From the NCBI GenBank assembly GCA_030280995.1, contig JASXTE010000001.1:5978501-6042500 (forward strand): a stretch of 64,000 nt of DNA, given 5' to 3'. Under the pieces are notes generated by a model. It was given only the letters and a program-made list of their open reading frames with translations, made no database searches and had not been told where the DNA came from. This stretch comes from Hemileia vastatrix (lineage: Eukaryota; Basidiomycota; Pucciniomycetes; Pucciniales; Zaghouaniaceae). Below, in pieces: positions 8,512 through 35,654 of the stretch. Both the position numbers and the translations under genes were made by a program. Each line of letters starts with the position of its first letter. The stretch's first letter is position 1.

Positions 8512-8555
8512 CACCACAGAAAATTTGGGGGGGGGTATTGCTAGCAATACCCCTC
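8512..8555 (+). repeat. Left TIR with embedded palindrome
   Basis: CACCACAG, an A/T run, nine G residues, then a perfect 22-bp palindrome at 8532-8553 with core TATTGCTAGCAATA. It is the partner of the right TIR at 35613-35654. Inside it, 8556-9408 is gene-free A+T-rich DNA with a few short repeats (GCTGTTGG at about 8586-8601); I see nothing else there. Confidence 0.85.
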
Positions 8556-9408
8556 ATTTAAAAATGTTGGGAAGTGGTTGGAAAGCTGTTGGAAGGCTGT
8601 TGGGAGTTCATTGTGAAACCAGATTTAAATTAATTGGACAAAGATTTGGTAATCAGTTAGACCTACGTTCAACCAAACTCAATCACAGGTTTCTTGGAGC
8701 TTGGTGATTACTTTGATTTTGAGCTGAGCACAGATTGAGCAAAGCTTGAACATATCACTTAACATATCATAATATTCACTTTCCCATCTTGTGGAAAGCA
8801 AAATTTGATATTCGTTCTAAGAATATCTACATATATTTTCTTGCCAAGTTGGTAACAGAAGGTTAAACTGTAGTATCTCAATTATTACACTAGACTACAT
8901 AGATATTTGATAAAACATACAATTCAAATCAATTTTAATATTATTGAGATCACCATAAGTGTCTTTCCAAAGACTTACAAAAAGTATGTTAGTATCAAGA
9001 TATCGTTCTAGGTAGTAGTTTCAATTTGGATTTTGAACTGACATCTAAAGCATTTTACTATTAGACAGAAACATAAATAAGTGTAATAAGAGTGAAATTA
9101 TTCTATTTTGTGATTATAATGTAACAATAATGCACATTTTTATTGAGAAAATTTTTCTTCCTCCACAAACCAAAATTTACTGTATAGGCTCAAGATTTAT
9201 TTTTAAGACATATTATTCATTTCAGTTATCATTGATTTACTTCCAATATTTATTAAAAAGATAATAATAATACATGTGAAAGAATTATGAGCTTAGCATA
9301 GCATATGCTAAAAAGTTATTTTGTCGTTTTATTCAAAACTGATTCTTCATTTTTTGCTTCAATTCATCTTTTAACAACCACTATCTTCAGATACTATTCT
9401 TACTTAAT

Positions 9409-11836
9409 ATGTCAAGTCTCAGATGTGTTGGACAGTTCTCAATAACAATCGATCAAATTTATATGAATGTAATTTCAAGATTTCAAAACTCACCGACCCC
9501 CACAATTTTACAGCGAGGCCATTCGAATGTTCATATTTTTGGACTATTTGAAGAAAGAAAACCAACCCTTGTTGGTAATCTTTCTCAAGTGCAGAGTCAG
9601 CACATTGGACCACTATTGGGTGACATTGGCTCTGGATCTCACCATTTAAACCAAAGAAGTGCCTTGAATCCTATGAAGCCTTTCTATTTTCATGCTTACT
9701 TGGTTCCAGTTTTTGGTAATCAGTATCAACTTTGGGGATGCCTCTTTTCTTCAAGTACACTAATCAGTCTTGCTAAAGAAGCATTTTCTTCTGCAAAAAT
9801 CGATTTATGTCCAATCCTGAACTACGACTCCACTATCTTTTTAATATCCCGCATGTAATTTTTGAAGGCTCTTTCCAAATATCTCAGAGTACTCAAGATT
9901 GGAAAGCTGATCAACTTATCCAAGGAATCAAAACAGTTCTCAAAACACATCAACTTCAAGCAATAAATTTTATGATTGACAATGAACAAATGTTAAAGGA
10001 AAAGTTGGATATCATGTGGAGGCACCAGGACAACCATTGGCTTAGAACTGGATTCGATGACTATAAAGATCAGTTTCCTAACAATCAATTGCCGCCTGAA
10101 GGAAACAGGTCAATACTTGCTGATGATATGGGTTTGGGAAAGACACTTTCAACTCTTTCTCTTATAAGTGCAACTCAAGGTGAAGCAAGACAATTCCAGG
10201 TATCAGAAAATCAAGAAGGTATTAATTGGAGTTCAGCCACACTGATTATATGCCCCCTGGCAACACTATCGAATTGGATCAATGAAATAAGTGTGCACTT
10301 TGAAGATAATGCACTTCCTTTCAAGGTTCTTTATGGGAAGGATTGTCAAAGTACTAATGTCAATGAGCTACAGGACACTGCTATTGTTTTAACGACCTAT
10401 GAAATAGCTAGCCCAACGATGTCAAAAAATCAAAGCCAAAAAAAGATACCAGTGACTCAAATGCTCTTTTGGTATAGAGTTGTTTTAGATGAAGCTCAGT
10501 TAGTGCCCATTTCTATATCTAAAACTTAAAACTTAATTTTTATAATCAATTTTTATAAATATTCTTTTAGTTACATTAAAAATCCTTACTCGCAGAGGGC
10601 TCAAACAATATTTGACTTGGAATCCCAACACCGACTATGCTTGACTGGAACTCCACTTCAGAACAGGCCCACTGACCTTCAAAGTCTAATATTTTTTCTT
10701 AGAATCGAAAAGTGGCAAGAAGACTGGTTATGGAAGAATTTCCTTTTTCCAGGTTTGCAAAAAGGAAAGGCTAATTCTATTAAATCAATCAATCACTTAA
10801 TGAAAGTCATAAGCCTACGTAGAACAAAGGATGCAATTTTGTCTCTTCCAAAAAAGATTCAAAGGGGGATATCAGTTCAATTAGCAGATCCATGGAGGTC
10901 TAAACTTGATGTGCTTCAAGAAGGATTCACTGAGCGATATGGGCCCTCCAGAAGCACTGACTTCCCTTGGGACTCATCTGAGTTTCTAAGAGAGCTGATG
11001 ATTTTAAGAAAATTCTGCAACCATCCAATCTACAAAAATCTGGATGAAACTCCAACTTTTGATTTCACCTGGCAGCATTCCGCAAAGATTTGTCATCTTA
11101 TAGGCCACTTAAAAAACTTTTTGTCTGGTGAAAGGGATATAAATTTTCCAAAAGCTGTTATATTCTCCAACTTTGCAGACTTTTTGCAGATGTAAGTGAT
11201 TCTATAATGAATTGTTTTACAAAATTTTGTTGGCTTATTAAAAACAATTTTCTAATATTTCAAAATAGAATAAAAATGGCTTTAGATGACCACAATATTA
11301 GGTATACCCAGCTTATGGGTGAACTCAGCCGGACAAAGCGAGACAAAAATATGCATGAATTCCATTTTAATGAAAATTGCCAAGTTTTGGTTGGAACGAT
11401 TCAGGCTGCAGGAGTGGGTATAGATCTCAGGTGTGCTCAAAATGTATATATAATGGTGAGCTCAATGTCTTTTATTTCATATTAAGAACAAAAATATTAA
11501 ATTTTTTATATGTTCAATGTTGAAATAGGAGCCAAATTTGAATCCAGCAGTTGAGCAACAGGCTGTTGATCGGCTGTATAGAATGGGGCAGCAAAATGAA
11601 GTAAATGTTTTGAATTATTTTGTACAAGAAAGTATAGAATTCAGCATGTATAAGATTCAAAGGAAAAAAATGGAGCTAACAATGTAAGCCAAATTTCATT
11701 TCTATAAATTTTAATGATAATAGTAATCATTAAAATTATGTTTTTGTTTTCAAGGCTAAGTGTCCCAAACAGTGGAAATGAGGAGTATGAGTGTGCAAAC
11801 CTATTATTAAGGGAGTTTGTCAATCACTCACATTAG
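9409..11836 (+). CDS. SNF2-family ATPase, RAD5/HLTF-like
   Basis: ATP-dependent DNA translocase of the SNF2 superfamily, presumably nuclear, acting on chromatin or damaged DNA. All helicase motifs are visible: I (DDMGLGKT, about 10117-10143), Ia (ICPLATLSNW), II (DEAQ, about 10488-10499), III (LTGTPLQN, about 10638-10661), IV (KAVIFSNF), V (GTIQAAGVGIDL) and VI (QAVDRLYRMGQ, about 11557-11590). Supported introns are 11192-11268, 11456-11528 and 11684-11754; a further one lies within about 10500-10596 with unclear ends. The product would be about 700 aa. The first 150 residues were not assigned to a domain, and no RING finger is seen between the lobes. A frame change between about 9770 and 9830 separates the N-terminal region from the ATPase core: frameshift or missed intron. 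The last codons overlap the convergent gene at 11820. SNF2 genes are expanded in rusts; a role in transposition is inference. Confidence 0.8.
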
Positions 11837-12940
11837 AGGAAGAAAGAATTTCAAGGAGAGCAGGTAAATTTATGGGATTTTGAGGATTTAAAAGTCTGAG
11901 TTGTTGAGGATTTAGAGATGCAAGATATAAGGGAGAATAACAGTCATTCGGCAAACCCCGGGGGACATGAGAAGGATTAAGGTTAGGGGATAATGTTGAA
12001 ACCAAACTGATTCTTTTGTACAAGGCCAAGTCCTTTAGCACACTGCCAGAGTAGGTTGAATTATCTCGAATATCAAAGTGTTGTTGGTCAAGATATTGTG
12101 CAACTTTAGAAAAATCTTCAGACCTCCATTGCATTAAGATACGTCTTAACGATCCATCATTATCAATTTCGGTGTCTGAACAACATTTGATGTTTGTGAA
12201 AAGGTTGTGATAAGTTTCACAATGTGGAAGTTGTTTAAGAAGTTTAGTTCGGTTAACTGAATTCTAAGAATCTTTGTTATTTGAAATAAAGGTCATAAAT
12301 AAAAACGGTTGAAAAAAAAGGGATTTTCATACTTTTTTTTTATTCTATATTTATGCTTTCTCACTTTGATTATTTCTTGAGAGCTATGAGAATCCTTCCC
12401 AAGTCTTAATCTATCAGCATGACCTAAAAACCAACGGTGAAGAACTCCTATTTGATTTGAGAAGCTAATTTGAGTTGAGTCAATTGGATATGCAATCAAA
12501 TTATTGGTTTTTAAGGCATTTTCCCAGTGTTTAATGAGAATATTTGCCAAGACCTGATTCCATTTGTCAAACCAATCTAGGTTCCAAGGGAAAGTTGATC
12601 CTGGGAAACCACACATGCGAAGGTGCTCAATAAAAGATTCACGGAAAATTGGTGGAAACTTTTCTGAAACCGCTGAATTTGATTCTGGATGAGGTAGTTC
12701 AAAGGCAATGTTGCAAGAATTCATGTCGAATGATGAAAATCTGTCTAATTGCTCTTCAGTAGGGTTTTGTTTCCATCCATTTGATTCTGGTGACATATCC
12801 AAAAGTGAACGACGAAAATTGTGTATAGATCTACAAAAGTGAGAATTGAATGGAGGCAAAGTCTCATTAAAAATTCTATTAAGTGTTCTTGTGTTTGTGG
12901 GCAGGTTTCCATGAGGAAAGTAAGAGCTACTAGGGTTCAT
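11820..12940 (-). CDS. Unknown protein, two exons, convergent with SNF2 gene
   Basis: Not recognised. Exon 1 (12940-12365) and exon 2 (12263-11820) are joined by an intron at 12264-12364 with a GTGAGA donor and TTCTTAG acceptor. The phase-0 junction gives one frame of about 339 aa. The protein is soluble-looking, rich in Ser, Asn and Pro, with a Trp/Phe-rich middle (FPWNLDWFDKWNQ, WENALK, HRWFLGHADRLRLG) that suggests a folded core. No signal peptide, membrane segment or metal site is seen. Its stop (11820-11822) lies inside the SNF2 coding end, so the two genes overlap tail-to-tail by 17 bp. The A+T-rich interval 12941-14014 between its start and the Tnp2 start could be a divergent promoter region; no other feature is seen in it. 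Confidence 0.6.
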
Positions 12941-14014: not shown

Positions 14015-17000
14015 ATGCCTCCATTTTTTCATGTATGTCAATGTCAAGATCTTGGATGTGTCAATAGAAAGTATCAAACTTCTTCTGGGTCCTTTGAAGT
14101 TGGTATGGCTTTCAAAAGCTCTAATTCTTATGCAAAACATCAAGAGGAAAGAAATAGGAAGGCCCAGATGGTTATTTCTTCCAACAATCCACTTAACATT
14201 GGAAGTTCCCGCTCCACAGAAACAGTAAGCTGTATATCTATAGTTCAATGTGAGAATTAAAGTCTTTATGATGTTTCAATGATTTATTACATAGGGGAAG
14301 TTGCTATTGGGGGCAGAAGTATCTTCAACAGTCTCTAGAAACTCAAATCTTGGGGAACGGTATAGCCAAATAATTATGTGGCAGGCAGCAAAGCTTTCTC
14401 TGATTCATCATTTGAGCAAAGAAGGTTGTACCCAATTTTTGGATGAAGAAATTAAGAAGCTCAAACTTCTAGGTGATAGTGGAATACTGGATTCTGATAG
14501 CATTGTCCGCCTGGTCCCACGCTCGATAGATACAGTTTTTAGTCGATTAAAGCTCAATCAATCATTTTTCACTAAAACATGCTGTCCTAAATGCTTTGCT
14601 CTTTATGAGTATAACTCTGAATCTCAAACATCTATACTATGTTGCAATCAACCGTTTCTTTCATCATCAAAGCGCTATTTAAAAATGTTTGGAGCAGGAC
14701 AAATTGCAGTTAAATGTGATGAAAGGCTGTATTTGATGGAGGAACATCAAGAACATGTAAAATACTTATCTCTTAAAACATTTCATCACCATTCTTTTAT
14801 CGACTGGCTTAAGGAAAAGATCAAACTGTTCAAATTTGAGCTTCTGATTGAGAAGAAAACCCCTGTGGCAGAACATGTAGAGTGTGATTTGATGAAGGAT
14901 GTTTGTGATGGTTCAATTTGGAAAAACTTTCCCATAACCACTCCAGCTCTGGATAGCAATGATGATGAATATACGATAACTTCAGGCAACTTAATGTTTA
15001 CTTTATATGTCGACTGGTTTAGGCCTGGTGGCAATAGGATTGGAGGTCATCAGAAGTCTGTAGGCAATATTATGATGGTGTGTATGAACCTACCTCAAGA
15101 AGATAGATACAAAATGGAAAATCTTTTTTTGTATTCTATTATACCCGGACCAACAGAACCCACAAGTGAACAGCTTAATCACCTTCTAAAACCACTGGTT
15201 AATGATCTACAAACTCTATGGGATGGTATATTGATTGAAAAGACACATCTTTATCCACGAGGCCGGAAATTAAGAGTTGCATTGTTCTCTTTGATAGGTG
15301 ACATTCCTGCAATACGAAAATTGGCTGGCTTTTCGAGTCACTCTGCAAAAATGTTCTGCTCTTTCTGTAATATCTCTAAAGATGAAATTAGTGAAAAGAA
15401 TGTGGGAAATTTTTCATTACGGAATCATGAGGATCATATGTGCTGGGCAACAAAGTGGAAAAATTCTAAGTCACATTGGGAGCGTGTATCAATTGTTCAA
15501 AATCATGGGGTACGATGGAGTGAGCTGAATAACCTTGAATATTGGCGCCCAACTGAATATTGCTCAATTGATGTTATGCATTCACATATGCTTGGCAACC
15601 TAAAAGATCACAGTCTAAGCTATTTTCAAATCCAAAATGCAGCAAAAGATCTAGAAAGAAAGCTGGAAAAGGATAAAAATTGGCATGTAAGAGAAGAATA
15701 TGATGATTTCTTTTCTGATACTTCACTGCACAAACATTCGAAAAAACGTAGAAGTAGCTTAAGCACCACGAATAATGATGATGATGATACAGGACACACG
15801 AGACAGCACAAGCAGCAAAGACGTACGAGTTCAAGACAGTCATCAAGTCATCATGGACTAGATAATGAAGGATTGGGAACAAATCGATCAAGAAGCCAGA
15901 GTAGGTCATCCAGCTCCAAATTTATTCCTCCATATAGCGATGTGGCCTCAATACAGTCTCACAGCAGTGACAGTAGGAATTCATTGTATAACTTAAGGCA
16001 AAGAAGCATTAGCATATCAAAGAGTGAAGGATCTCACTCATCAAATGAGACAGCTAGAGATGAAGAAAATAAAAGGAAAGGTAAGGAGAAAGAAAATGAA
16101 GGTAGTAGTAATCCACGAATCACAGCAGCAGAGCTACAGGTTGTATGGAAGATGATTGATCAAGTAAGAAGACCTTCCTGGCTAACACGAGTTCCAAAAT
16201 CAGTAGGATCTAAAAAGGCTGGATCCCTCAAGGCAGCAGAATGGCACATGCTGTATACTCTCTACTTCCCTTTGTCACTTATACCCCTTTGGTTTGAAAA
16301 ATTTAAAGAATCTGAATCTTCAGCTTCCTCAGCTGATAAACCAAGAGAATATTATCTTCTCAAGTCACTTGTAACATTATGCTCGATCACCAATTTTTTG
16401 ACATTAAAAAATATACAGACTAATGAGCTTAAAGATCTAGATCAATTTCTGTTAGAGTATCGTGAGTACCTTGAAGAGGGTTGGAAGAATATTAATGCAA
16501 AGCCAAATCTGCATATCACTCAACATTATCCTGAAATGATAAAGCGTCTTGGTCCACCATCAGGTACAGCTACTTGGTCTGGAGAGCAGGTGAATCATAT
16601 ATTATCTGAAATTCCAAACAATCACCATCCACGTATGTAATGTTTGTAAGCAATGATTTAAAAACTCAGCTGTGCTAATTTATTAATATTTACCACAGGA
16701 GAGATACCGCTAACAATGCTCAAACATTGGTATCGGAAGTCTAGGGTATTAGATCTTGGTGAAGCTGAAGATAATGATCAATGTGAGACTAAAAAAATCC
16801 ATATTGATCTCGATAAACAAAACAAATGGATCCATCTAAGTATGGCATTATTTACTAAATGGGTAAGGGCACGAATGGGAAAAGAAACTTCAAGACGGGC
16901 TTTGACACCATCGGAGAAAAGTGGGGATCGGGTAGTTGAAAATGTAGCAAGCATATTGATACATGGAAAGAGGTTTACTAGTTACCATCGACACATTGCT

Positions 17001-17403
17001 AATTCAACAATTGAATTCTACTATGGAAAAGATAGCCAGTTTGGGCAAATTGATGATCTTTTCAGATCAAAGGAAGAGATTGATCAAATATATTTAATAG
17101 TAAGTCCTTTCAAAGAGCTCCGTCCAGAAGAAACATCAAAGGATCCCTATGAGCTTTTCCCACAAGTGCATTGTCGGTTAGGAAGAGTAGCCAAAGCAAC
17201 TCAAATTGTGATTAAGAAAGATGCAATAATTGGACATGCAGCTACTGTCGAGCACAAAAAAGGAATGTTTGGAATCAAAGACGAGGTTGTCACTGCCATT
17301 GGACTGCAGACAGTAGTGAGTGAAAAAATTAATCAAATTTATTTTCTGTTGACTAACATCTTTGTGTTAATTTGGGATTGGGGAAATTTGTAGGATTGGT
17401 GAT
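14015..17403 (+). CDS. tnp2: Tnp2-family transposase (CACTA/EnSpm type)
   Basis: Likely the transposase for the element. Exons 14015-14224, 14295-16632 and 16699-17315 are joined by introns with GTAAGC/ATAG and GTATGT/CACAG borders. A small last exon at about 17395-17403 ends at TGA. Joined exons stay in frame for about 1057 aa. The N-terminus has a Cys/His-rich segment (HVCQCQDLGC). The core has landmarks typical of the Tnp2 family: LYVDWFRPGGNRIGG, NLFLYSIIPGPTEP, SAKMFCSFC and GVRWSELNNLEYW followed by CSIDVMHS, in which acidic residues of the catalytic site are expected. A Ser/Arg/His-rich low-complexity insert lies at about residues 518-675 (15640-16110). The C-terminal part resumes with ITAAELQVVWKMIDQVRRPSW. 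TIR and 3-bp TSD agree with this family. The last exon is the least certain part. Confidence 0.85.
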
Positions 17404-17819: not shown

Positions 17820-19469
17820 ATGGATGATAATTTTGAAGGGATGTCTGTTGACCCAACCAATTCTGATTGTTTTCCCCCTCAACATACTAATACTGGAAAT
17901 ACTCCTCCACCACCCTCTGCTGATCCACCTCCAGATGCATCTCAATCTGTACCACCTAATCCTAACCCACCACCTAATCCCAATCCAGGCCAAGAGTCTC
18001 ATTCAGAACCGAGAAATTTTAATCCCAATCATCCTTCTGCTTCTGAAAGTGCTGATCAGCTAGGAAGAGATTGGGCTAGTGAAGTATTGAGGGAATTTTT
18101 CGGAGACCAATCATCATCTGCTCAGCCTAACCAAGGAGCAAGCACAAGTGGAGCAGGTAAGTCAAATTTGTAGTGTATTCTTTTATTGAAAAATAACCAA
18201 TTTAATTAACTTATTTGAATTGTTAGTGAATCCCTCAATCATTATGGGTATCAGTGATTACCACAGACTCAATTCAGCAGAGTCTCATGAGCGAGAACAG
18301 GGGTTAAGGGCTGTAAGAGGCTTAGTTAGAAGGAATGATGTTCCCAGGAGCTCAGACAGTCTAAATAGAAATATTTACCACTTTCTGAAGTATTGTCTTG
18401 GGTAACCAACACAAATAGCAAAATATCCTGCGAGCCCAACACCTTTGGAGATTGAAAATTGGAAAGATTGGAGCCAATTCAAACTGTCCTAACCCAAGTC
18501 CAATCTTCTAACCGTGCCAATTCTGCAGCTGATCGACGATTTCTGATAACCAATTCTATAGCCTTCTTGCGATCCAAAATTCGACTACCCGAATTTTTTC
18601 CAGCACCTGAGCCTCGAGGACTAAAAGGAGGAGCACCGATCCCACTTTCTGTCAAAAGAAACTTAGAGCGTGAATTGCAAGAAAAAGGTTTTCGGAAATT
18701 CGCGTTTGATTGGACTTGCCCTAATTTTTCAGAATCAACTTGGAATCAAGTCATGGGAAGCATAGTATGCGACCACTGTACCAGATGGCTCACCACCTTG
18801 AATACAATCGATCAGTCAAAGCTTCAGTTCACTCAATGTGTTATTGAGAAATGGGTAGTTAATAAGGGGAAGGAGATGATAAGGTTGTTTGGGCAAGAAG
18901 AGGAAAGGGTAGCAAGAGAAAAGATTGAAAAGAGGGCAAGGGCACAAGTAAAACGTTATCGGACCAAGGTAAGTTTCTTATTTTACTTTGCTTTTTGTTA
19001 TTATGAAGCTGATTTAGTTGGAATTCAGATTGTTAGTGCACGCTACAAGTTAGCAAGAGATCTCTGCAGTGATGTGCCAGGTTTTGTTGTGCTTTTTCAT
19101 GATACTAGGTGCATCTCTGATATCGAGGAAGGCCCAGCACCAGCCCCAACTGCACCTATCCGAGCTATTCCTGGATGGCGAAATCCTGAACTCAATGATT
19201 TGTTTAAAAAAATGGATAAGATGACAAAGGACTTAGCCCATACACCAGCTCAAAAAAAATCAGCATTAAAAACATATTCACGGTCATCAGAAAGGACAGT
19301 TGCACAAAATGGTATATTCAATGTTCCCAAATACCTCCCCAAGAATTGCTATTCAGCAACATTTTTGAAAGGATTATCTGTGAATGAACGTGAGTCACTT
19401 GGGGTTGGAGCTGATATTGATCTGGTAAAGATTCGGGAATCAATTAATAGAGCATCAACATCATCATAA
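17820..19469 (+). CDS. Second transposon gene, possible TnpA-like partner; frame-broken
   Basis: Follows tnp2 by 0.4 kb on the same strand; the interval is A+T-rich and presumably holds its promoter. Exon 1 (17820-18156) encodes an acidic, Pro/Asn-rich N-terminus with NPNPPPNPNPG. An intron 18157-18226 (GTAAGT/TTAG) joins in frame to exon 2. A TAA at 18403-18405 interrupts what still reads as coding (EIENWKDWSQF). A one-base shift near 18475 is then needed to reach the main frame (QTVLTQVQSSNRANSAADRR). An intron at 18969-19028 (60 nt) follows a basic Glu/Arg/Lys helix (EEERVAREKIEKRARAQVKR). The C-terminus reads AIPGWRNPELNDLF. No known domain was recognised; a DNA-binding accessory role like TnpA of En/Spm is suggested by position only. 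It may be a pseudogene unless the two breaks are assembly errors. Confidence 0.55.
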
Positions 19470-19683
19470 CTTAGGTATAACGGTGATCTTCTGTGTAATA
19501 TAGCTATCTTATATTGAATTTTATGTATTCTGTTTTTTTCAAAGCAGCTTGGTAAATGTTATAAAGTGATATTGAGAGAGAGTAACATTTTATTTAAGAA
19601 AAACAAATAATGTATGAGATATAAAAATGTATTTTCAACAAATTGATGGTCCATACCTCTTTATGTCACATTTATGTATCCAT

Positions 19684-21621
19684 ATTAATTTCAATCGAAC
19701 TTAATGTTGACCAATACATAGTGAATACACGCTATGCCACTTATACTTGCCAGGCATTGCTACCATTAAATATGCCAGTATCAAAAATTAATTTCGATCG
19801 AAATTAATGAGCATGATAATCATGAATTTCTGGAGTCAACTGCTTATTTTTATGCATGGTGCCTTGCCAACATTAATTTCGATCGAAATTACTTTTGATA
19901 CTGGCATATTGCATGGTGTCTATTCCTGGAAAGTGTAAGTGGCATATTGTGTATTCATAATGTATTGGTCAACATTAATTTCAATAGAATTTAATATTGA
20001 CATTTTCATATTGAACCCAAACCAGCAAACGACCCAAAAAATTCTTCATAAAACTGCTCATTAATTTCGATCGAAATTAGTGAGCACCATATACATATTG
20101 AATGGTAGTTATATCTGGTGTGTGTAAGTTGTAAAGCTTGTGTTCAATGTTTATTGGTCAACATTAATTTTGATTGAAATTAATATTAATGTGTAAATGA
20201 TATTTACATGCTCAATATGCATTGTAATGTGTTTACTTAACAATAGAGTGCCCTACTTTTCATCTTACATAAAAATGCTTGGTAGCATGTCAAATTCAAT
20301 TTTTATTAAAATTAATGTTGACATGTTACCATGCATAACAGTAAGCAACTGACTGAATAAATTGATGATAATCATGAACCTTAATTTCGATCGAAATTAA
20401 TGTTGCCAAGTGCAGATTGAAAAAAAGCTATGCCACTTACACTAGCCAGGCATATTTACTATTTATTATGTATTGGTCAACATTAATTTTTATAGAAATT
20501 AATATGGATATGTAAATTTTATATTTACCCTCAACATGTATAGTAAATTTCAATACTTAAAAATACTTGCCGTCCTTTACATGTCATGCAAAAAAGCATT
20601 ATATCATTTCAACATTAATTTTGATCAAAATTAATGTTGGAATGCCATTATGCATTGAAACAACTAACTGACTGAAAAAGTTCATGATCGAAATGCTCAT
20701 TAATTTTGATCAAAATTAATGTTGACCAATACATATTGAATATAAGTAATCTCCACTTACTCAGACCAGATATAACTACCATTCAATATGTATATGGTCA
20801 GCCTTAATTTCGATCGAAATTAATGGGAAGTTTTATGAAGAATCTTCTGGGTTGTTTTCTGGCTTGGGTTCAATATGCAAATGTCAACATTAAATTCGAT
20901 CGAAATTAATGTTGACCAATACATTATGAATACACACTATGCCACTTACACTTTCCAGGCATATATACATGCAATATGCCAGTATCAAAAGTAATTTCGA
21001 TTGAAATTAATGTTGGCAAGGCACCATGCATAAAAATAAGCAGTTGACTCCAGAAATTCATGATTATCATGCTCATTAATTTCGATCGAAATTAATTTTT
21101 GATACTGGCATATTTAATGGTAGCTATGCCTGGCAAGTGTAAGTGGCATAGCATGTATTCATTATGTATTAGTCAACATTAATTTCGATTGAAATTAATA
21201 TGGACATGGACTATGCATAAAATTCCTATAAGTATAGGTAAGCTAAGCAGTTAGATAAACTGGTTTGATCAAGTACACCATATAAAAATTGATGTTTTAA
21301 TGCCTTGGTTAATTTCGATCAAAATTAATTTTAAGCCATGCATGTTGAATTTTATCTATGTCTGTGTAGTCCATGTGAAATGGCTTGTATTCAATATGCA
21401 GGGGTCTATATTAATTTCGATCGAAATTATGAGGTTCATTGCCTCATAAATTTGATGGTTTCTGTCAGTGTTTCATGCATGGTGCCATCTGATACTTGTT
21501 GATTCCTATCAAAATTAATTTCAACACCAATATATTGAATACAAACCATGGCACTTACAGTACTTGGTCATAGCTAAAATTCAATATGCTAGTCTCAAAA
21601 TTAATTTCGATAGAAATTAAT
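19684..21621. repeat. Array of 20 palindromes with three spacing classes
   Basis: Twenty copies of a 22-bp palindrome (core ATTTCGATCGAAAT, flanked by TTA/TAA) are centred at about 19694, 19797, 19882, 19984, 20070, 20173, 20305, 20390, 20492, 20624, 20709, 20813, 20899, 21000, 21085, 21188, 21318, 21420, 21508 and 21610. Centre-to-centre distances are 103, 85, 102, 86, 103, 132, 85, 102, 132, 85, 104, 86, 101, 85, 103, 130, 102, 88 and 102. Spacers fall into families occurring in both orientations: the one at 20911-20989 returns reversed at 19892-19973, and the one at 21012-21074 returns reversed at 19809-19871. The outer parts form a large imperfect inverted repeat about position 20441. There is no ORF and no match to a known satellite. 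A protein-binding or replication/transposition control region is possible. Confidence 0.9.
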
Positions 21622-22654: not shown

Positions 22655-25347
22655 ATGTCTAGTATACAAAATCCTACACCTCCACTTTGTATGTATATCA
22701 CACTACGCAATATAGGGGGTGGACTTGCTAGCAAGTCCTCAACCTGAACTCAGATGGAACTCAGATGGAACTCAGACTGAACTCATACTGAACCCATACT
22801 GAACTCTACTTGAACACCCACCTAAAACTGTTCTGCTGAGTGGTGTTCATCCCTGATTGAATGGTTCCTTTATCAATAGCTCAATGTGTGTTCAATCTAT
22901 GGTGAGTTTGGGTCCAAGGTTTCAGACTTGCTAGCAAGTCCGCCCCCCATATTGTGTGGTGTCATGTTCCTCTCTCTTAATTTATATATTTCACTTATGT
23001 TCTATATCTTTTTTTTTCAAAAATTTGATTTTCCAGCACCCAAATGTGTTTCATCCCACTCTCTGATTGATACTCGCTTTGAAGCTTTTGAGCTTGCACC
23101 ATGTCTGCCACATGGCATGGCACCTAACCCTCCTGTACTTAGCAATGAGAGGCAGGAAATAACAAGAGTTCAGTATCGCAATTTACTTGAATTGGCTAGA
23201 GATAAAACAGAAGAGCTTGTCAAGATCCTTAAAAATAATCCTTCTCCTTCATATTTATCTAACCCTTGTAATGAATTACTCCAATATGTGAAAAGCCTTG
23301 AAAAATGTATGTTCATCACCTTTTTTGTCTCCTTTTAAATTAGTAGATAAGATTATTAATATTTTTTTTTCTTCATATATATTTGTAGCTTATGAGGAGG
23401 GTATGATTCCTCCTGATGAAGTCATTGTCATTAGGGATGATGATGAGACAGATGAACCATCAGCTTCAACTCATGCTTCAACTTCTAAGGAAAATCTTGA
23501 AACACCTGTTATCCGCTCCAAGAAAAAGAGATTATCCCAAGGCTCCTCTTTTGTTCGACGTATTAAACCGGCTTCTGCTAATGAATTTTCTGATGTATCA
23601 AATAATAAATCTCAAAAAAAAGCAAAGGTTTTGATAATGAGTATATTCTTGTTTCCTTTTTTTTATTGTTATTCTTTTATCTTTAAAATTCAATCATACA
23701 TCTCTTTTATTGCTTACATATTGTACTTTTTATCTTTCTTTTGATATTTTGTACCAGAAACTCACCTGCTGTAGATTGTTCCATCCATAAACGCCCTCTC
23801 CCTGATGAAGATGATGAAAAGAGCAATGAAAATAGCGATGATCAACTATCAGAATATGAAGCTATGCTTGTTCATCAAAAAAAGCAAAGTTTAAAATCTT
23901 CTTCAAGACATGTTGATATGTTTGATAAAGATGATGATTCAAACAGCTCATCACCAAATTCCTTCATTTCTAAGAAGCAATACCCATCACCTCCTAAATT
24001 ACCTACTTTGACCTCTTTGAAAGCTTCTCTACCAATGAAATCAACTCCAATCAAGATATCAAAAAAACCTCTAACTTATTCACCCTCAGTTCTAAAAGAA
24101 TCTGATTTGCAGGAGGAATTCTGTAAAATTCATAATTTTTATAAAGGTAGAATCAGCACGGCAAAGGTCCTCAGGTCGTGGTTGGAAATTTTTACTCTCC
24201 TCGAATTACGCTCTTCTACTTCTTCCCAAGAACCCATGTCAAATATTCCAATGTTTACTTTTCATTGGGAAAAATCTTGTGGAGAAGATTGGCTTTCAAA
24301 ACTTACTGAGTTATGTAAGTTACCATAATTTTTAGTCTTGACTTTTGTTCTTTTACTTATTTTTTTTTTCCTTTTGTAGCAAATATTTTTTTAGAGATTG
24401 ATAGCTCACAGCTATGGGTACTCGATAATATTGATTTCAAAAAAATGGAAGATTTATGTGATCCTGATGGTTTAAATACTGAAATTCTTTCCTCAACAAA
24501 GAAAACGGATCACCCTGAATCCAATCTTATCCAAATGCTCATGAGATTAATGATCCCAAGTGACCACTGCCGTTCTTCATGGGTATCTCTTATATCATCT
24601 TCACTTTATCTGACCGCACATGAATTCAGCTAGCTTCCATCACATCAAAACATTAACTCAGATTGTCCAATTGAACGTGGTCTTCAGCTTCTAGCTCACC
24701 TTTCAAATCTGAAGAGTCCGATTTCTGATGGCTTAGAAGTTGGTCCCACTGCACTTCAAACCCGTGATATATCAATGTCAACTCTTCTTCAAATCAGCAA
24801 TATTATCATTGATATAATTATGTCAATTATCATTCTTAAATCAAAATATTGTGCTGCAACAATATCAAGTGGCAAGACTAGTGAAGCTCAACAATCAAGT
24901 GAGAAAAACGAAAATACTGAACTGACTATAATGAGAGAGAAACAAAAGGCTGCACTAAACAAAATAAATTCTGAATACTCCCACCACCGATATCAATCTT
25001 TCACATTCTATATAATCGATGGTGTCCGTGGTTTATTTCTGAGCTCTCAAGATCATAGATTGGCTTCAGCAGCTGATTGCTTGGAGGTAATATCAGAAGT
25101 TAAGTTTCTTAATTTACATGAAAAAAAAAATCATTTGATGGAAGAAATAATTTAGAAAAATTTAAATAACTATATTTTAACATTAATAAAACCTTTTATA
25201 GGCAAGTGTGATCCATTTCCTTTAAAATTTGATACCCCAAGTCCTCCGGGAATTGCTAGGGCTATTTCTGCAGATTTTCTTAATCACTGGAGCTCCATTC
25301 AGCCAGTATCACCTTTTTTTGCTAAACATAGCCTTTCAATAAATTAA
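22655..25347 (+). CDS. Unknown multi-exon gene with MITE in intron 1
   Basis: Not recognised. Proposed exons: 22655-22688, 23037-23306, 23389-23627, 23758-24314, 24380-25086 and about 25202-25347, with GT/AG borders (GTATGT, GTATGT, GTTTTG, GTAAGT, GTAATA donors). Exon 1 (MSSIQNPTPPL) joins exon 2 in frame across 348 nt of intron, 264 nt of which are a MITE plus its duplication. The protein is about 630 aa, hydrophilic, with Ser/Asp/Glu-rich low complexity, a basic patch (RSKKKRLS) that could be a nuclear signal, and short hydrophobic helices near 24790-24850. Lesions: the 23627/23758 junction needs one base fewer in an A-run at about 23614-23621; a TAG at 24631-24633 interrupts continuing coding sequence; the last junction is one base out of phase. 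It may be decayed, or residual indels may be present. Confidence 0.55.
22701..22961 (+). mobile_element. 261-bp CACTA-like MITE, copy 1 (level 4)
   Basis: Starts CACTACGCAATATAGGGGGT and ends in the imperfect reverse (CCCCCCATATTGTGTGGTG). Each end carries the 18-bp palindrome GGACTTGCTAGCAAGTCC or nearly so. The 3-bp duplication TCA lies at 22698-22700 and 22962-22964. Subterminal repeats of the type GAACTCAGACT (about 22745-22805) resemble TnpA-site clusters of CACTA elements. It has no coding capacity and lies wholly inside an intron. Its ends resemble those of the 27.1-kb host element but the palindrome differs. Confidence 0.9.
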
Positions 25348-26146: not shown

Positions 26147-27355
26147 TTATATATCTAGATTTTTTAGATTTGTCTTAACATTAGATAAATAATACTTTGC
26201 TGATTCTATTTCTTCCTCTATTAAGTCATCTCTTTTCAAAAAAACTCTCAAAACACTAATCAAATATTCTAACCTAAATTTTTCTTTTTTAATTTCTAAG
26301 TATTCTGAAATATCAATATCAAAAACATTAAGCTTTTCTATAGCATGAAAAAGTCTAGTGCTGATTTGAATAGAAGAACCTATCCTAGTGAAGCCAGGAA
26401 TTTCATGACATCTTGAGGTAAAATGCCTTAGTTGATTGGCAGGCCATAATGTCACTGTTATTCCATTAGTTGCTTCAAAGTTGATTTTACTTCGAATTTC
26501 GGGAAACATAAGTTCTCCACCTATTTGTCGTGGTTGGGTCTTATCATACTTCATATGAATGGTGTTTTTTTCTGTATCTTTAGGAAAAAATATTCCTAAA
26601 GTATACTCACTTGCATCCTTATCGAGATGAACCACATTAGAGAACCCATTACCATTCCCTCCAGATGTCCAAGTTAAATTACTAGCAAACGGTACACCCT
26701 CTTCTTCACTAGAAACTTTTGAAAATCCAGGAATACCAAGTTTTGCGCAAAGATTAGTTGCCTCATTGTACTTTACATATGATATTTTTTTAAAAAAATA
26801 TTCAAAGTACATTGCAATCCTCTTCATTCGTTTTTTATATTCATCCGTTTTTACAATATCATCAGTGTATTCATCTGCAAGGAAAAGCATTCAAAAATTC
26901 AGTATTTAAATTAAAAAAAGTGATACTTACGAATATGTAAAGATTTCTTTCTATCTAAAATAAAGCCACCACCAAACATTTTTCCAAAACCACCAGCTCT
27001 TTGATGATAACCATTATTTTTAATTTCATGTTCGCAGTAAGAAAGATCCTTAATGCATCGCACCGTAGCTTCTAACATATCTAGTTCTTTGAGCTCATGA
27101 ATTTCAAAAGTCTGCACAAGAACATTAGGTATTAAGACACCTTTTGGTTTATAAATACTACATCCAGGAAAAAAATTGTAATAATTATTGCAATCTGTCA
27201 TATTCTTTGCATAAGATCGTGCATAGAAATGTGGCTTCTTCCCGTTTGTATCCATTCCAAGAGCGTTTACAAGTTTCATTCCAGTAGCAATGTCTTTCGC
27301 CCACCTATTGTTAGAGTTCTTCCCTGGCCGTTTTTTTTTTCAAATCTTTACTCAT
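26147..27355 (-). CDS. TET/JBP-like 2-oxoglutarate Fe(II) dioxygenase
   Basis: Probably oxidises modified bases in DNA (5-methylcytosine or thymine in known TET/JBP enzymes). Two exons: 27355-26931 and 26874-26147, with an intron at 26875-26930 (GTAAGT/TTGCAG) joining in frame. The iron site is visible as HLD (His codon 26627-26629) followed by EYTLGIFFP, then GGELMFPE, and a distal His in LRHFTSRC (26423-26425). An Arg in FTRIGSSIQI is the likely 2-oxoglutarate ligand. The layout HxD...H...R and the spacing fit the fungal TET/JBP (2OG-FeII_Oxy) group, which is expanded in basidiomycetes and linked to DNA transposons there. The N-terminal region has a Gly-rich GGFGKMFGGGF segment. The start ATG at 27353-27355 is separated from the rest by a run of ten A's (plus strand 27331-27340) where nine keep the frame. 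The exact substrate is unknown. Confidence 0.72.
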
Positions 27356-27948: not shown

Positions 27949-29101
27949 GATGTTTTACTTTTCATATTAATAATATAATGGTTGAGAAAGTATTAAAGAA
28001 ATATAGAAAAATGATAAGCAAAACATGAACTTACATGTCTATAAAATCTTCTTCCATTTGTAGCTGATTGATCAAAATTAATTATAAAGTTTATTTTATA
28101 ATCACTGTTTTAAAAAATAAATGGTTTGATAAATAAATTGAACATTTTTGATAAGGAATAAAGAAAAGTAAATTGACAAACAAATAAAAAAACTTTAAGT
28201 TAACTGAAAAAGAATTATTTTATAATGAATCGAAAGGGTACAGTAAAAGATACCATAAAAATAAATTCAGAATTAGAATCATTAGATTAACTTGTCAAAA
28301 GTGTAAAAAAGTGTAACAAACCAAAATGATATGAAATGCAATAGCAAGAAAAATTTGCTTACCGGTAATCAGATAAGGTCAAGAAAATAGTACCAATAAT
28401 TCAAAATGATAAAGCAAAAATATGATTGATAATTTTTGAAAAAGGTAAGTGAGGAAGAGAAAGGAAAAATAAATTGGGTGGCAAACAGATGTATATATCA
28501 TGAATTTTCACTGATCACATTTTCAAAAAAATGCAGCTCTCCAAGTCATATGATAAACTTCATCTAAATTCCAAGAATGATGTTGCCAAGGCACTGTACA
28601 CAGCATGATCATTTTTTCCTATGCATATACTAATTCCAGCTAGAATTTACTTGGCTGCATGTTGTACAGATGCACATTTGTGGAACACTGAATTTCACAT
28701 CTAAAAAAAATTGACGCCACATAATTCTAGCTACCATGTTTCACGTAGCTAAAAAACATACACTCATCACATTTAAATTTACATTGCGCCAAAATTAATT
28801 CATTTTTGAATTTTTTTAAAGGAAACTATAATGTGCACCACCTATTTCTAAAATATGAACCTCCGCACCATATTAAATTGGGAGACTTTTAATTATGCAA
28901 TTTTTTTGCCGTGACCTTTTTCCTGATCTTACTTGGTTCAAAATATTGAAACATGGCCAATGTTGATGAAAGAAACATTTGATTTTGTTTCTATGTGTAA
29001 CAATGGAAGGCTGTTTCTTACTGGCTGAAGAGTGTTGTATATTTTATTTGAACAAATTTTTATTTTTTTATGTATTTTATTTAAAAAATTTACTTTTTAT
29101 T

Positions 29102-29784
29102 GCAGCCAGATTTATACTGGCTGCTTTTTAGAAACCTTAATTTATGACCCAAGCCTTTGAAATTGGCTTGGGTCCCTTACATTGCAATTTAGTACTTCCA
29201 GCCAGGTTTCCCCTGGCTGGAAGTGTCTCTTTCAAGCAATCGAAGTCGCTAAAAGCGACTTTGATTGCTTGCTGTAATGTTTGCCACCCTCCCAGCTAAT
29301 TTACTATGCTGGGAGGTGGCCAAAGCAGTGTGCAACGCGCGTTGCTGCTGCAAGTAATGCGCGTTGCACAATCGCTACCATATTTCATGCAGCTGATATC
29401 AAGTCAGCTGCATGAGATATGCGCAGCATGTGCAATGCGCATTACTTGCAGCAGCAATGCGTGTTGCATGTGCTGCATGCAGTGCATTGCACAGCCAGTT
29501 TTTTTCTGGCTGTGCAATGCACACTGAGAAACCAAAGTCCCTGCAAGGGACTTTGGTCTCTAAGATGGAAGCGACTTTCCCTACCAGGTGCAATCTGGTG
29601 GGAAAGTGAGAGAAACGTTAGACCGAAGTTGTTTGAAAGCAACTTCGGTCTTAAAAACATTAAAAATCATAAAAAAAAAATGAGAAATGTAGAAAAAAAA
29701 AAAATTAAAAATTAAAATGTGAGTATAAGAAAAAAAATAAGTTCTAGTGATACCAAAAATCCAAGCCAATTTCATTTGGCTTGG
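29102..29784. repeat. Island of about eleven successive hairpins
   Basis: A G+C-rich, CpG-containing island in A+T-rich DNA, made of consecutive inverted repeats with short loops. Stems: 29102-29109/29117-29124 (8 bp); 29146-29155/29165-29174 (10); 29194-29206/29212-29224 (13); 29233-29250/29254-29271 (18, one mismatch); about 29282-29295/29308-29320 (one bulge); 29331-29370/29429-29468 (40, three mismatches) with an inner stem 29386-29396/29404-29414 (11); 29482-29498/29506-29522 (17 perfect, T7 loop); about 29527-29542/29546-29561 (one mismatch); about 29573-29586/29594-29606 (one bulge); a 12-bp stem within 29621-29653; 29761-29769/29776-29784 (9). The three mismatches of the 40-bp stem all sit at CpG sites. 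ORFs here are by-products of the symmetry. A structured RNA, small-RNA precursor or DNA cruciform region is possible. Confidence 0.9.
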
Positions 29785-31940: not shown

Positions 31941-31972
<32 letters not shown>

Positions 31973-33679
31973 TTAGAACGTCATCCTTTTTTATTTACTT
32001 GAATAAATGGCTCAATTATAATACCCAACACTTATTAATGTTTCCCAAACTCAATAACAAATTTCTCATATGAAATATTAGCTTCTAATATAAGAAGTTT
32101 ATCTATAGATGATATTCAACATGTGATTTTACTTTTTAGATTCAGCTAAAATTAAACAAAAGGAGAAATCATGCATATGTGTATAAATGGTAACCATATG
32201 TTACTTAGAGGATTGTGAAATTCACTCATCAGAATGGTTTAAGTATTAAAATAAATTGAGGTCATTATTTTCTAGTATTTGAAACTAATTAGGAAATTAT
32301 TCTAAAAATATATTTTAATGTGTATCATGTTTAAAAAGTTGGAAATATGATTTTTGAAAATTGTGAGTTTCTTATGAGATACCAAGCTTTAGTTTACATT
32401 GTTTCAAGTAGAATAGAATTTTAGTATTAGAAATTGAAAGCAATGTACCATTATCAGATTTTAACTGTGTTCTACTTATAGAATGATTACATAACATTAA
32501 ACATTATTTAAATCAAAAAGATTTAAAAGATATTTAGAATTTTACCAAATTTCACCATTTATTAATCTTTGATTTGAAAACAAACTATGATGTACACTCA
32601 CTAGAAATAAGCAATCCCAATTTTAACATAATTTATCAATCCAAAAATAATGAGTCAATTAACATGAAAATATATATTATTTCAAAACCAATTCTCTAGA
32701 TTTAAAATATGATGCTTTAATGAAAAATTATTACAAAACTTTAATGCAATGAAGTCTCTTAAAAAATTCAAAAATAGAATATCAAAACAAGTAATTTCTG
32801 CAAAAAAAACTACTAACTATTGTAGATAAAGCATAAAAATAAGTCATATTTTTTAAAAAAATGATCTAACAATATTTATTTTTGTTAAAAAAATCAAAAC
32901 ATTGTTAAGTTTGCTTGTTATAATAATGTTAAAATCCACTAAACATTATCTAAAGGTGGTAAAATATGTTAAAAATAAGTTGAATTTTATGAGATAAAAT
33001 CAACAATTTTGTATCATTTCCTGTTGTGCTATGACTTTATTCCACCCTTTTTATCTGATTCTTCCAGTATTACTTTGCTATGATCACTAGTTTTCAAGTT
33101 AAAATTTACAAATGTTCATTATACTTGATAATATGAAAAATAACTCAAACTTTTATAACTACAAAATAAGATTTTGTAACTCCTTCTTTCAATCAATATT
33201 TGAAGAAATTTTAGTTTATTTGAGTAATGATTTTAAGAATAACAAAAAATTTGAAATTCACAAGGAATTATTTCCAGAGACTATAATTATTTACTTGTGT
33301 AATGCATGAGCTACTTATCAATGATGTAAAACATCAGAAAAGTAAGTTATAGTTATAAATCTACAGATTATACTGTTTCTGGTATATATATCTTCAATAA
33401 ATCTTTTAAACTTATCTTAGCCTACATACCACACAATAGAAAATCATTATATTAAAAATGGAAAAAATTCTATGATAATATCATAAAGAATGATAACCAT
33501 GGATTAATATTCCATAAAAATGGTTAATAATATTTTAAGAGAACCTAAATCAGTATTCTTTCATCAAAATATATCCTTTTTGTCTTTGTAATTTATTCCA
33601 AACAAATTTTTTGAAAGTTGAATCTATATATCTAATGCCAAAACCACTATTAAGTTCCCTCTTAGACTTTTTAAGAAAT

Positions 33680-33710
<31 letters not shown>

Positions 33711-35612
33711 TATTTATCAAAAATTGAAATAAAGAATAAAAACATAATTTTATTTACCTTTAATTATTTAAATATAGAGTATTTTCAGAATGCATTGTGG
33801 TTACTTGTGAAGGTTAGAAGATTTGAAGTTGGATTTATGAGTTTTTAGAAGGGCAAATATTGTAAAATTCTTTCATAAATATTTATTTCATAGTTTCAAA
33901 TGTTGAAATCTACAAACTAATGGGATTTAAAATTATATTGAGATTTAAAATCTGTTTTCTACTCAAGTAAAATAAAATAAAATGATGATATCAAAATTGA
34001 AATTAAGTTTAAACTTTTGATATGCTCTATCTTCAATTTTATTGATAGTGCATCAAAAATTTAATAATATTTTTTTCCTTCATCACTTTTTACATAAAAG
34101 ATAGTTTTATCATTTTATGAATTAAAGATTGCTTATATAAATTTAACATCTATGTCAACTGTTTATGACTATTAATCTATATAATAAATTTTTTAGAAGA
34201 AAAAATAACATCAGTATATACTGACTTTGAAATTATTCAATTTAAAATAGTTTACAGGTAGATAATGAAGGGTGATTTCATTTTTGAATATGAACTATAG
34301 AAGTCTTATTTTATCAATTTAAATTCTTTTTGAGCTCAAATGTATCCACCGCAACTTAAGTAAGAATAAAAATTATTTTTATTGAAATTTACATGAGAAA
34401 GTATGCCAATTATTCAAAATCAAACTTGCTCTAATGGTGTTTTTCAATCATTATTTCCATTCATAACAATAAAAAACATTTCAATTTGCTGATGTTTTAG
34501 TTTTTGATATCCCCAAGTTTATATCTCAGGTGTACTATTCACAAAATTATTAAAAATATAATTTTCGAAATACATGATAAACTTGAAAGTGAGGGGGCAT
34601 TAAATTTTTAAAAATGAATTCTAAATTCAGGATGGATAGTATTTTTCTATTTTCACAAATGAACAATTTTTTGTTTCAATTAATCCAGAAAGAAAATTTT
34701 GTTGTAAGCATATTATATTATATTTATTATGATTTTAAATACTATATTTTCAAGATTTGTGTTTAATATTTCCTGTGAAAGTTAATGTTAATGTGAATTT
34801 AAAGTAAGCTTGAAGAAATTTAATCAATAGGCATATTGGATATTTAAAATAATATTTTGCTCCAATCTTGAATCATCCTGGGCTAAAAAATATCCCAAAT
34901 AAGGTTTTTGTGGGTCAATTTGGATTTAAGTAGGATTAAGTGAGGTTTAATAAAGGACAGATAAAAGGCTAAATTCATTACTAGTGACTTTTTTCTCAAA
35001 ATAGTTATAAAATATGTATCATTCTGGAATCAAGCTTCAATAAAGTTGAATTGAAACAGAGATAATTTCTAGCAGCACAACACCATATTTACAAAGGTGT
35101 AAAATACCTCAAATATTACTCATAATATAGGAAGGCAAGGAATCTACAAAATTCACATTTCAAACAAGGATTTATATTTTGAATTTGAAATTGAGAAATG
35201 GAATATTATTTTCCAATTTAAATATCTATTAGTCATTTTAACAAAAGTTTTCAGTAATCAGATTGAATTTTGATGGTATTTTGTTGTAGATTAATCATTT
35301 TGATGAGACATTTACTCAAAATTACTGGTTTCGTTTCTAATATTCCATGTGAAATTCATTACGAATCTTTTTGAAAGTGAATAGTTGACATATTGGATAT
35401 GCAAAAGCTTATGTTAGATCAAAGTGAGATCAAAGGGAGCTTAACTGATGATCAAATTAGGATTTTACAAGATCAAATGGTGATCAATGTAGGTTCATCT
35501 TGAGCTCAATTTGTGACAAATCTCTGACTAAATAAAAGGCCAAACAATTTCCTACATGGTGATGATGTGTGCATAATTCAAGCATAGATTTGTGGCTCAA
35601 CTGAGCTCAAGC
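29785..35612. other. 5.8-kb gene-free right arm of the 27.1-kb element
   Basis: Very A+T-rich with several (TA)n runs (about 31941-31965, 33677-33710) and no credible coding region on either strand; the 65-codon frame at 33112 is not supported by anything else. The last 200 bases are less A+T-rich and contain several GATCAAA-type repeats (about 35417-35486), a plausible subterminal binding-site cluster as in CACTA elements. Confidence 0.6.
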
Positions 35613-35654
35613 AAGGGGTATTGCTAGCAATACCCCCCCATTTTTTCTGTGGTG
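35613..35654 (-). repeat. Right TIR with embedded palindrome
   Basis: Mirror of 8512-8555: the 22-bp palindrome at 35615-35636, a C run, then ATTTTTTCTGTGGTG. It ends at 35654 and is followed by the AAT duplication. Confidence 0.85.

What the first reader, a model, noticed from the sequence alone, without database searches (positions are those of the whole stretch)
8512..35654. A 27-kb CACTA-like transposon combining Tnp2 transposase, SNF2 ATPase and TET/JBP-like dioxygenase
Inverted ends, a 3-bp duplication and in-frame restoration of the interrupted gypsy-A ORF show directly that everything between 8512 and 35654 entered as one unit. TET/JBP genes in fungi are known to associate with KDZ-type transposons. 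Here the transposase has Tnp2 landmarks, so a CACTA-type carrier with both a chromatin remodeller and a DNA-oxidation enzyme would be an unusual combination. A self-protecting or methylation-erasing transposon is inferred.
Basis: partly seen in the sequence, partly recalled or inferred. Interest (0 to 1): 0.93.

Follow-up and report, generated by a model that had tools for sequence, protein, structure and literature searches.

The report
Giant rust transposon carrying epigenetic enzymes
A 27-kb jumping gene, present in many near-identical copies in what looks like a rust-fungus genome, carries a chromatin remodeller and a DNA-demethylase-like enzyme besides its own transposase, which suggests that it may bring tools to resist being silenced.

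Summary
Window 8512-35654 is one DNA transposon: 41-43-bp terminal inverted repeats (CACCACAG...CTGTGGTG), a 3-bp target duplication, and flanks that rejoin in frame in a gypsy ORF. The host genome (747.6 Mb) holds many copies. Six fetched copies are collinear over the stretch fetched (98.6-99.3%) with all six genes, and 9 of 9 copies read at both ends have matching 3-bp duplications. Separate nested capture of the cargo is therefore rejected; only a 264-bp CACTA-like insert (22698-22961) is private to the window copy. The transposase is Tnp2/CACTA (EnSpm), not KDZ. Genes: SNF2 ATPase (frameshifted in this copy), Tnp2 transposase, TET/JBP-like dioxygenase, three unknowns, plus a 20-copy palindrome array. 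TET-bearing CACTA elements in rusts are already published (Kojima 2025). The SNF2 companion I met in no listed paper. It belongs to a rust-only SNF2 clade and also lies upstream of the transposase in 3 of 3 fetched copies of a second Tnp2 family (35% identical transposase) in this genome. A SNF2-assisted, TET-based anti-silencing role is plausible but untested. Among five copies, CpGs mutate C>T 27 times more per site than other cytosines, so any protection is incomplete.

The parts
8509..8511 (.). target-site duplication AAT, left
   Evidence: 9 of 9 copies read at both ends have a matching 3-bp TSD
8512..8554 (+). left terminal inverted repeat, CACCACAGAAAA..., with internal palindrome
9409..11687 (+). 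gene 1: SNF2 ATPase, Rad5-like, 4 exons by the 11-copy comparison; frameshifted in this copy; majority frame of 11 copies open over 685 codons
   Evidence: Pfam; models; rust-only clade; nearest solved chain RAD5
11820..12940 (-). gene 2: unknown, about 340 aa; similar ORFs lie between SNF2 and transposase in two of three fetched copies of a second Tnp2 family
14015..17402 (+). gene 3: Tnp2 (CACTA/EnSpm) transposase, about 1057 aa, with CxxC and conserved H residues
   Evidence: PF02992; alignment; model
17820..19469 (+). gene 4: unknown, about 484 aa
19684..21621 (.). noncoding array, 20 copies of a 22-bp palindrome ATTAATTTCGATCGAAATTAAT (up to 6 mismatches), about 85-130 bp apart, two CpGs in the full core
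   Evidence: the region is aligned in all six fetched copies
22698..22961 (.). 264-bp CACTA-like insert (CACTACGCAATAT...ATATTGTGTGGTG, TSD TCA), private to this copy; not part of the family
23037..25347 (+). gene 5: unknown, about 620 aa, several exons; this copy has a 1-base length difference in one exon
26147..27279 (-). gene 6: TET/JBP-like 2OG-Fe(II) dioxygenase, 2 exons in the model, HxD...H triad present, no stop or frameshift in this copy
   Evidence: PF20515
29700..35600 (.). gene-poor right part, GC 22%, CpG o/e 0.07; part of the element in all five copies read end to end
35614..35654 (-). right terminal inverted repeat, ...CTGTGGTG
35655..35657 (.). target-site duplication AAT, right

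Best explanation
Shown: a CACTA/EnSpm DNA transposon family, about 27 kb long, in many near-identical copies, that inserts as one unit with a 3-bp TSD; every copy read over its genes (the window's and six others) carries the Tnp2 transposase, SNF2, a TET/JBP-like dioxygenase and three unknown genes. From knowledge of CACTA elements: the transposase moves it by cut and paste. Inferred: the dioxygenase oxidises methylcytosine (or another base) on the element's DNA, which hinders its silencing. The SNF2 ATPase, seemingly an older partner of this transposase lineage, opens or moves nucleosomal DNA so that the transposase and the dioxygenase can reach it. The palindrome array may be the cis site to which the element's own proteins are recruited. 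Single copies decay by CpG mutation, so the family would live on a minority of intact young copies.
For: Unit and copies. TET gene and metal-binding residues. SNF2 also upstream of Tnp2 in 3 of 3 fetched copies of a second family with 34.6% identical transposase, so the pair is not a one-off capture. SNF2 is in a rust-only clade (26 rows, 100/100). PF20515 genes are at 150 of 150 scored places and probably many more in this genome (10,849 loose candidates), in Harbinger elements in the two cases fetched. Methylation-type decay of the copies (C>T at CpG 0.052 per site against 0.0019 elsewhere, highest at TCG 0.073) shows a pressure to resist. Precedents: JBP2 of trypanosomatids joins SWI2/SNF2 and a TET/JBP domain in one protein and needs the SNF2 part for de novo base J (PMC10057400, passages); Kojima proposes anti-silencing for TET+ transposons (PMC12730594).
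Against: No activity, expression or methylation data. Changes among five copies show no clear purifying selection: non-synonymous to synonymous ratios, with the ratio expected by sites, are TET 2.29 (2.77), SNF2 3.8 (2.75), gene 2 4.0 (2.63), transposase 4.0 (2.69), gene 5 4.83 (2.67), gene 4 13.0 (2.49); that is what decaying copies would show, but it is no support for function. SNF2 is broken in 8 of 11 copies. The TET has no hit in a word-limited search of 5.8 billion proteins nor a meaningful one among solved structures, and its substrate is unknown. The copies lose CpGs fast, so protection, if any, is partial. The second family showed no TET of its own in the stretches fetched.
Confidence: 0.5

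Rival explanations
1. A CACTA element with passively captured genes: the cargo rides along and does nothing for the transposon.
For: No clear purifying selection in any gene among copies; SNF2 broken in 8 of 11 copies; TET genes pass between transposon superfamilies in rusts (Kojima 2025) and the 150 PF20515 places scored here all score above this element's TET exon, so they may mostly be other families (only two were fetched).
Against: 6 of 6 fetched copies keep all six genes; the majority SNF2 frame is open over 685 codons and 3 of 11 copies are undamaged; SNF2 accompanies a second, distant Tnp2 family. Loose first-look counts for cargo are of the same order as for the ends (1346 left, 1552 right, 1492 TET, 1478 gene 4, 1912 SNF2).
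Confidence: 0.2
2. SNF2 serves transposition itself (Rad5-like repair or replication bypass at excision or insertion sites, or access for the transposase), and only TET has to do with silencing, or acts on transcription through oxidised bases.
For: SNF2's best solved match is the repair ATPase RAD5 (6l8n, 1.2e-44) and many of its database neighbours outside rusts are named RAD5 or HLTF. SNF2 occurs with Tnp2 in a second family without a TET of its own seen, so the pair does not seem to depend on TET.
Against: Family resemblance of SNF2 ATPases predicts function poorly; no RING or HIRAN domain was found in the exons scanned, while the RAD5/HLTF rows carry such accessions (domain names of those accessions recalled).
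Confidence: 0.25
3. A composite of nested insertions: the cargo genes arrived later in this copy alone.
For: The window copy does hold one nested insert (22698-22961), and two other copies hold nested elements of 4.6 and 9.2 kb.
Against: The six genes are collinear at 98.6-99.3% in 6 of 6 other copies, and the four of these read to both ends have flanks and TSDs of their own.
Confidence: 0.01
4. A KDZ (Kyakuja-Dileera-Zisupton) or Plavaka element rather than CACTA/EnSpm.
For: Kojima writes that rust EnSpm transposases resemble Plavaka. Of the seven database hits of the transposase, six carry PF02992 and the only one named to species is from a basidiomycete, Earliella scabrosa; none is named as a rust EnSpm.
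Against: 3-bp, not 7-8-bp, TSD; ends CACCA..TGGTG, not CATCA..TGATG or TGT..ACA (features of KDZ and Plavaka as given by Kojima); PF02992 hit and no KDZ family hit at E up to 1 (that Pfam holds a KDZ family is recalled).
Confidence: 0.04

Closest known systems
TET+ EnSpm/CACTA families of rusts (Kojima 2025, PMC12730594; parts 1-5 of 7 of the text and the figure legends read, supplements not readable)
   Same: CAC..GTG ends, 3-bp TSD, transposase related to EnSpm and Plavaka, TET/JBP-like gene inside the element, rust host (here inferred).
   Different: SNF2 is not mentioned in the main text, and I saw no mention of a palindrome array or of three further genes in the parts read; sizes and gene lists are in supplements that I could not open.
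TET+ PHISTA (PIF/Harbinger) elements, in this same genome (L053, L054)
   Same: PF20515 dioxygenase 30-32% identical to this one with the HxD...H residues shared; in an element with a transposase.
   Different: DDE_Tnp_4 transposase and a third protein, weakly SANT-like in L053; no SNF2 among the ORFs of 120 aa or more scanned in the 9 kb read of each; ends not determined.
JBP2 of trypanosomatids (PMC10057400, passages read)
   Same: Couples a SWI2/SNF2 ATPase with a TET/JBP dioxygenase acting on nuclear DNA.
   Different: One fused host protein that makes base J; here two separate genes in a transposon, substrate unknown.
VANDAL/VANC anti-silencing transposons of Arabidopsis (PMC10398659, abstract and outline read)
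   Same: Element-encoded protein lifts silencing; its targets are noncoding tandem repeats within the element.
   Different: VANC is no dioxygenase and VANDAL are Mutator-like (recalled); whether the array here is a target is a guess.
Second Tnp2 family of this genome (L055-L059)
   Same: SNF2 - (gene-2-like ORF) - Tnp2 order; SNF2 in 3 of 3 copies, gene-2-like ORFs in 2 of 3.
   Different: Transposase 34.6% identical over 463 aa; gene-2-like ORF on the same strand as the others, not opposite; no TET of its own seen in the stretches fetched; ends not determined.

Membership tests
CACTA/EnSpm | termini CAC..GTG | tested here: met
CACTA/EnSpm | 3-bp target-site duplication | tested here: met
   9 of 9 copies with both ends read; 8 further fetched copies not testable (right end not in the stretch fetched)
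CACTA/EnSpm | Tnp2 transposase, PF02992 | tested here: met
   2.3e-15, 56.8 bits, cut-off 28.6
CACTA/EnSpm | C(2)C and H(3-4)H between second D and last E | tested here: inconclusive
   D336, C355, C358, H429, H439 invariant in 8 sequences; exact H spacing and the last E not resolved
CACTA/EnSpm | placement in the transposase tree | not tested
   no EnSpm reference set at hand; no protein named as rust EnSpm appeared
KDZ | 7-8-bp TSD and KDZ transposase | tested here: not met
   3-bp TSD; no KDZ family hit at E up to 1
PlavakaB | termini CATCA..TGATG | tested here: not met
   CACCA..TGGTG
TET/JBP-like dioxygenase | 2OG-Fe(II) domain of the Tet-like superfamily | tested here: met
   PF20515, 79.4 bits, cut-off 27
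TET/JBP-like dioxygenase | HxD...H metal triad | tested here: met
   H88, D90, H156 shared with two Harbinger-borne TETs
TET/JBP-like dioxygenase | oxidation of 5mC or T in DNA | not testable with these tools
   no assay; AlphaFold model useless (mean pLDDT 33)
SNF2 ATPase | SNF2 N domain and helicase C domain | tested here: met
   PF00176 and PF00271; 26-row rust clade
autonomous transposon | intact transposase within intact ends | tested here: inconclusive
   transposase free of stops and frameshifts in 2 of 5 aligned copies, the window copy included; transposition not tested

The most novel reading that the evidence does not exclude
A two-enzyme anti-silencing cassette: a rust CACTA lineage in which a Rad5-like SNF2 ATPase is an old core gene and a TET-like oxygenase was added later, so that remodelling and base oxidation are recruited together, in the manner of a split JBP2, to a CpG-bearing palindrome array inside the element, which let a 27-kb transposon rise to perhaps over a thousand copies in a heavily CpG-mutating genome.
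Probability: 0.3. Interest if true: 0.85.

Novelty: new variant of a known kind. Interest (0 to 1): 0.62.

Why it matters
Transposon-borne TET/JBP genes are known in fungi, but their function is not experimentally validated (Kojima 2025). This family is very large, young and multi-copy (at least 40 scored copies, perhaps over a thousand), and carries a second chromatin enzyme that also accompanies a distant sister family. It offers many natural replicates, with TET and SNF2 intact or broken copy by copy, on which the anti-silencing idea could be tested from 5mC calls alone.

Tried and rejected
KDZ or Plavaka assignment: rejected on ends, TSD and Pfam. Nested assembly of cargo: rejected by copies. 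Chance ends: rejected by 9 of 9 TSDs. DNMT5-type SNF2 (a fungal SNF2-methyltransferase, PMC13297926, passages): not supported; the best solved chain is RAD5 and no chain named DNMT5 is among the 60 of 74 shown.

Led nowhere: protein search with the TET model (no hit) and against solved structures (two chance-level hits); viral contigs and genome-contig scans (no relatives); AlphaFold of the TET exon without relatives (mean pLDDT 33); first SNF2 tree, whose query row, read from copy C579, was out of frame, so I rebuilt it with the window model. In one search one Puccinia protein, P0091, grouped with the non-rust rows; I left it, and P0090, out. Proteins under 480 aa were dropped from both trees. 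An exact count of the ends by a TIR pattern was not obtained.

Dropped rows: copies c2 and c5 were left out of the alignment because the fetched stretch ends before their right end. Sister-family sampling is three copies only. The 16 other copies fetched whole or at their ends were all chosen by a near-identical left end, so they lean towards young copies and cannot show copies that lack that end.

Species: not named by any tool. 'Rust' is inferred from the Puccinia-only nearest SNF2 neighbours, PF20515 abundance and TCG-biased decay.
Full report
The element. The left end at 8512 and the right end at 35654 are inverted repeats of 43 and 41 bp with 39 matching positions; they begin CACCACAGAAAA and hold a perfect 22-bp palindrome. 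AAT flanks both ends. Taking out the element and one AAT leaves the gypsy reading frame open for 1549 codons and one stop. A related gypsy element, itself nested in another copy of this transposon, reads across the same position.

Genes. A simple codon and splice-site predictor written here, with Pfam scans, gives six genes: SNF2 (+, 9409-11687), an unknown (-, 11820-12940), Tnp2 transposase (+, 14015-17402), an unknown (+, 17820-19469), an unknown (+, about 23037-25347) and a TET-like dioxygenase (-, 26147-27279). The models are approximate. The three unknowns have no Pfam match above a cut-off. Between genes 4 and 5 lie 20 copies of a 22-bp palindrome whose full core has two CpGs; many copies differ at those CpGs. 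The right-hand 6 kb is gene-poor, 22% GC, CpG o/e 0.07, while the genes have 0.30-0.55, the gypsy-A stretches 0.04-0.07 and two other gypsy stretches 0.73-0.79.

Copies in the host genome. The genome has 747,610,610 bases in 791 contigs. Forty places, the most that are scored, match the left 600 bases at about 100% and forty match the right 600 bases at 99-100%. First-look candidate numbers, which are loose and not verified, are 1346 for the left end, 1552 for the right end, 1492 for TET, 1478 for gene 4 and 1912 for SNF2. I fetched six other copies, chosen by their left ends, over 28.8 kb each: 6 of 6 are collinear with the window copy at 98.6-99.3% over what was fetched and include all six genes. 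Four could be read to both ends, with TSDs TAT, TCT, AGT, TTT. Ten more copies, also chosen by their left ends, were sampled at both expected ends: 4 have the right end where expected, all with matching TSDs (ACT, TAT, ATT, AAT), and the other 6 are still inside the element there at 99.2-99.8%, so they hold extra, presumably nested, sequence. Among 40 left and 40 right places, 6 pair at 26.4-27.2 kb, the window's own included. Among 40 TET places, 10 have a listed left end and 5 a listed right end within 45 kb on the same strand, the window's own included in both; since the lists are capped at 40, the unpaired ones say nothing. Six of those ten left pairs share an offset of about 18.2-18.3 kb instead of 17.4, which suggests a subfamily that multiplied with about 0.8-0.9 kb more.

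State of the genes. Against the majority of five aligned copies, gene 2 is undamaged in 5 of 5, TET in 3 of 5, gene 5 in 3 of 5, transposase in 2 of 5 and SNF2 in 0 of 5. Gene 4 has a stop in 3 of 5, and the other two, the window copy among them, differ by 16 bp in one predicted exon, which may be a fault of the model. With six more copies SNF2 is undamaged in 3 of 11. The window copy has transposase, gene 2 and TET without stop or frameshift, and a frameshift in SNF2 and a 1-base difference in gene 5. None of the five copies is undamaged in all genes.

Silencing pressure. Among five copies, single-copy changes from C to T are 27 times more frequent per site at CpG (120 changes over 464 sites and five copies) than at other cytosines, and highest at TCG. 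Kojima 2025 cites TCG hypermutation for Pucciniomycotina, and a paper on the rust Austropuccinia psidii reports CpG depletion and hypermethylated TEs (PMC12774611, passages). The TET-bearing family is thus not exempt. No gene shows clear purifying selection among copies: only TET lies below the ratio expected by sites (2.29 against 2.77), on 23 changes.

SNF2. In the database search the first 33 rows, and 37 of the 120 shown, are Puccinia proteins, 30-46% identical; the other rows are RAD5/HLTF-like or other SNF2 proteins. A tree of 39 rows puts the element's SNF2 in a clade of Puccinia proteins only (26 rows with the query, 100/100; 13-row subclade 98/97). One Puccinia protein, P0091, fell with the non-rust rows in an earlier tree and was left out of the second. 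In the wheat-rust genome comparison PF00176 appears in a domain table with the values 2.56 and 5.77E-12, which I read as enrichment (PMC5295586, passages without the column heads). A second Tnp2 family was found with PF02992; three copies fetched have SNF2 upstream of the transposase on the same strand in 3 of 3, and gene-2-like ORFs in 2 of 3. The TET match near one of them lies beside a Harbinger-type ORF like that of L053 and probably belongs to it. So SNF2, and perhaps gene 2, look like core genes of this CACTA lineage and TET like an addition; this is an inference from three copies.

TET. PF20515 gives 150 scored places, all over the cut-off, among 10,849 first-look candidates, and none in 14 control genomes. 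The two places fetched have DDE_Tnp_4, TET and a third protein, like the PIF/Harbinger (PHISTA) elements that Kojima describes. Their TETs are 30-32% identical to this one and share H-x-D and the distal H. The element's TET had no hit in the protein database, whose search needs shared short words, so it looks like a divergent member.

Literature. Kojima 2025 already has TET+ EnSpm with these ends in a rust. JBP2 shows that a SWI2/SNF2 part and a TET/JBP part can work together on chromatin (PMC10057400, passages). VANC proteins lift silencing at tandem repeats of their own transposons (PMC10398659, abstract).

Verdict. A real, coherent, young and abundant CACTA family. Its TET cargo is a known kind of thing; its SNF2 partner, recurrent in a sister family, is the new part. 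The anti-silencing mechanism is the best guess, not a result.

Noticed in passing
L055-L059 (G000 C338, C42, C348): A second Tnp2 family with SNF2 upstream of the transposase in 3 of 3 fetched copies; its ends and full gene list were not determined.
   Followed up: partly
host genome G000, for example L053 and L054: PF20515 Tet-like genes give 10,849 loose first-look candidates and 150 of 150 scored places over the cut-off; the two fetched lie beside DDE_Tnp_4 transposase ORFs, and the third protein of L053 weakly resembles a Myb/SANT domain (E 0.002, below the cut-off).
   Followed up: partly
window 7129-8508 and 35658-39377: The interrupted gypsy-A has almost no CpG (o/e 0.04-0.07) yet long open frames, unlike gypsy stretches at 48-60 kb (0.73-0.79): a retrotransposon that seems to have become CpG-poor without losing its frames.
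   Followed up: no
window 4440, 22698-22961, 43318-43518: Short CACTA-like elements or fragments; those at 4440 and 22698-22961 have ends CACYACGCAATA or the like, and all hold the palindrome core TTGCTAGCAA shared with the big element (7 exact cores in the window, 0.03 expected). A 4.6-kb relative is nested in one copy.
   Followed up: partly
window 19684-21621: Palindrome array whose copies often differ at the two core CpGs; spacings recur at about 85, 102 and 132 bp within a unit of about 319 bp.
   Followed up: partly
window 29100-29700: GC-rich (44%) stretch with inverted repeats; length differs among copies (gaps of 22 to 93 bp).
   Followed up: no
window 47992-60082: gypsy-type stretches in inverted arrangement, arms of 1.4 kb at 98% complementarity.
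   Followed up: no
G000 copies on C338, C26, C2, C348: 6 of 10 left-end/TET pairs share an offset of about 18.2-18.3 kb, a likely subfamily with about 0.8-0.9 kb extra.
   Followed up: partly
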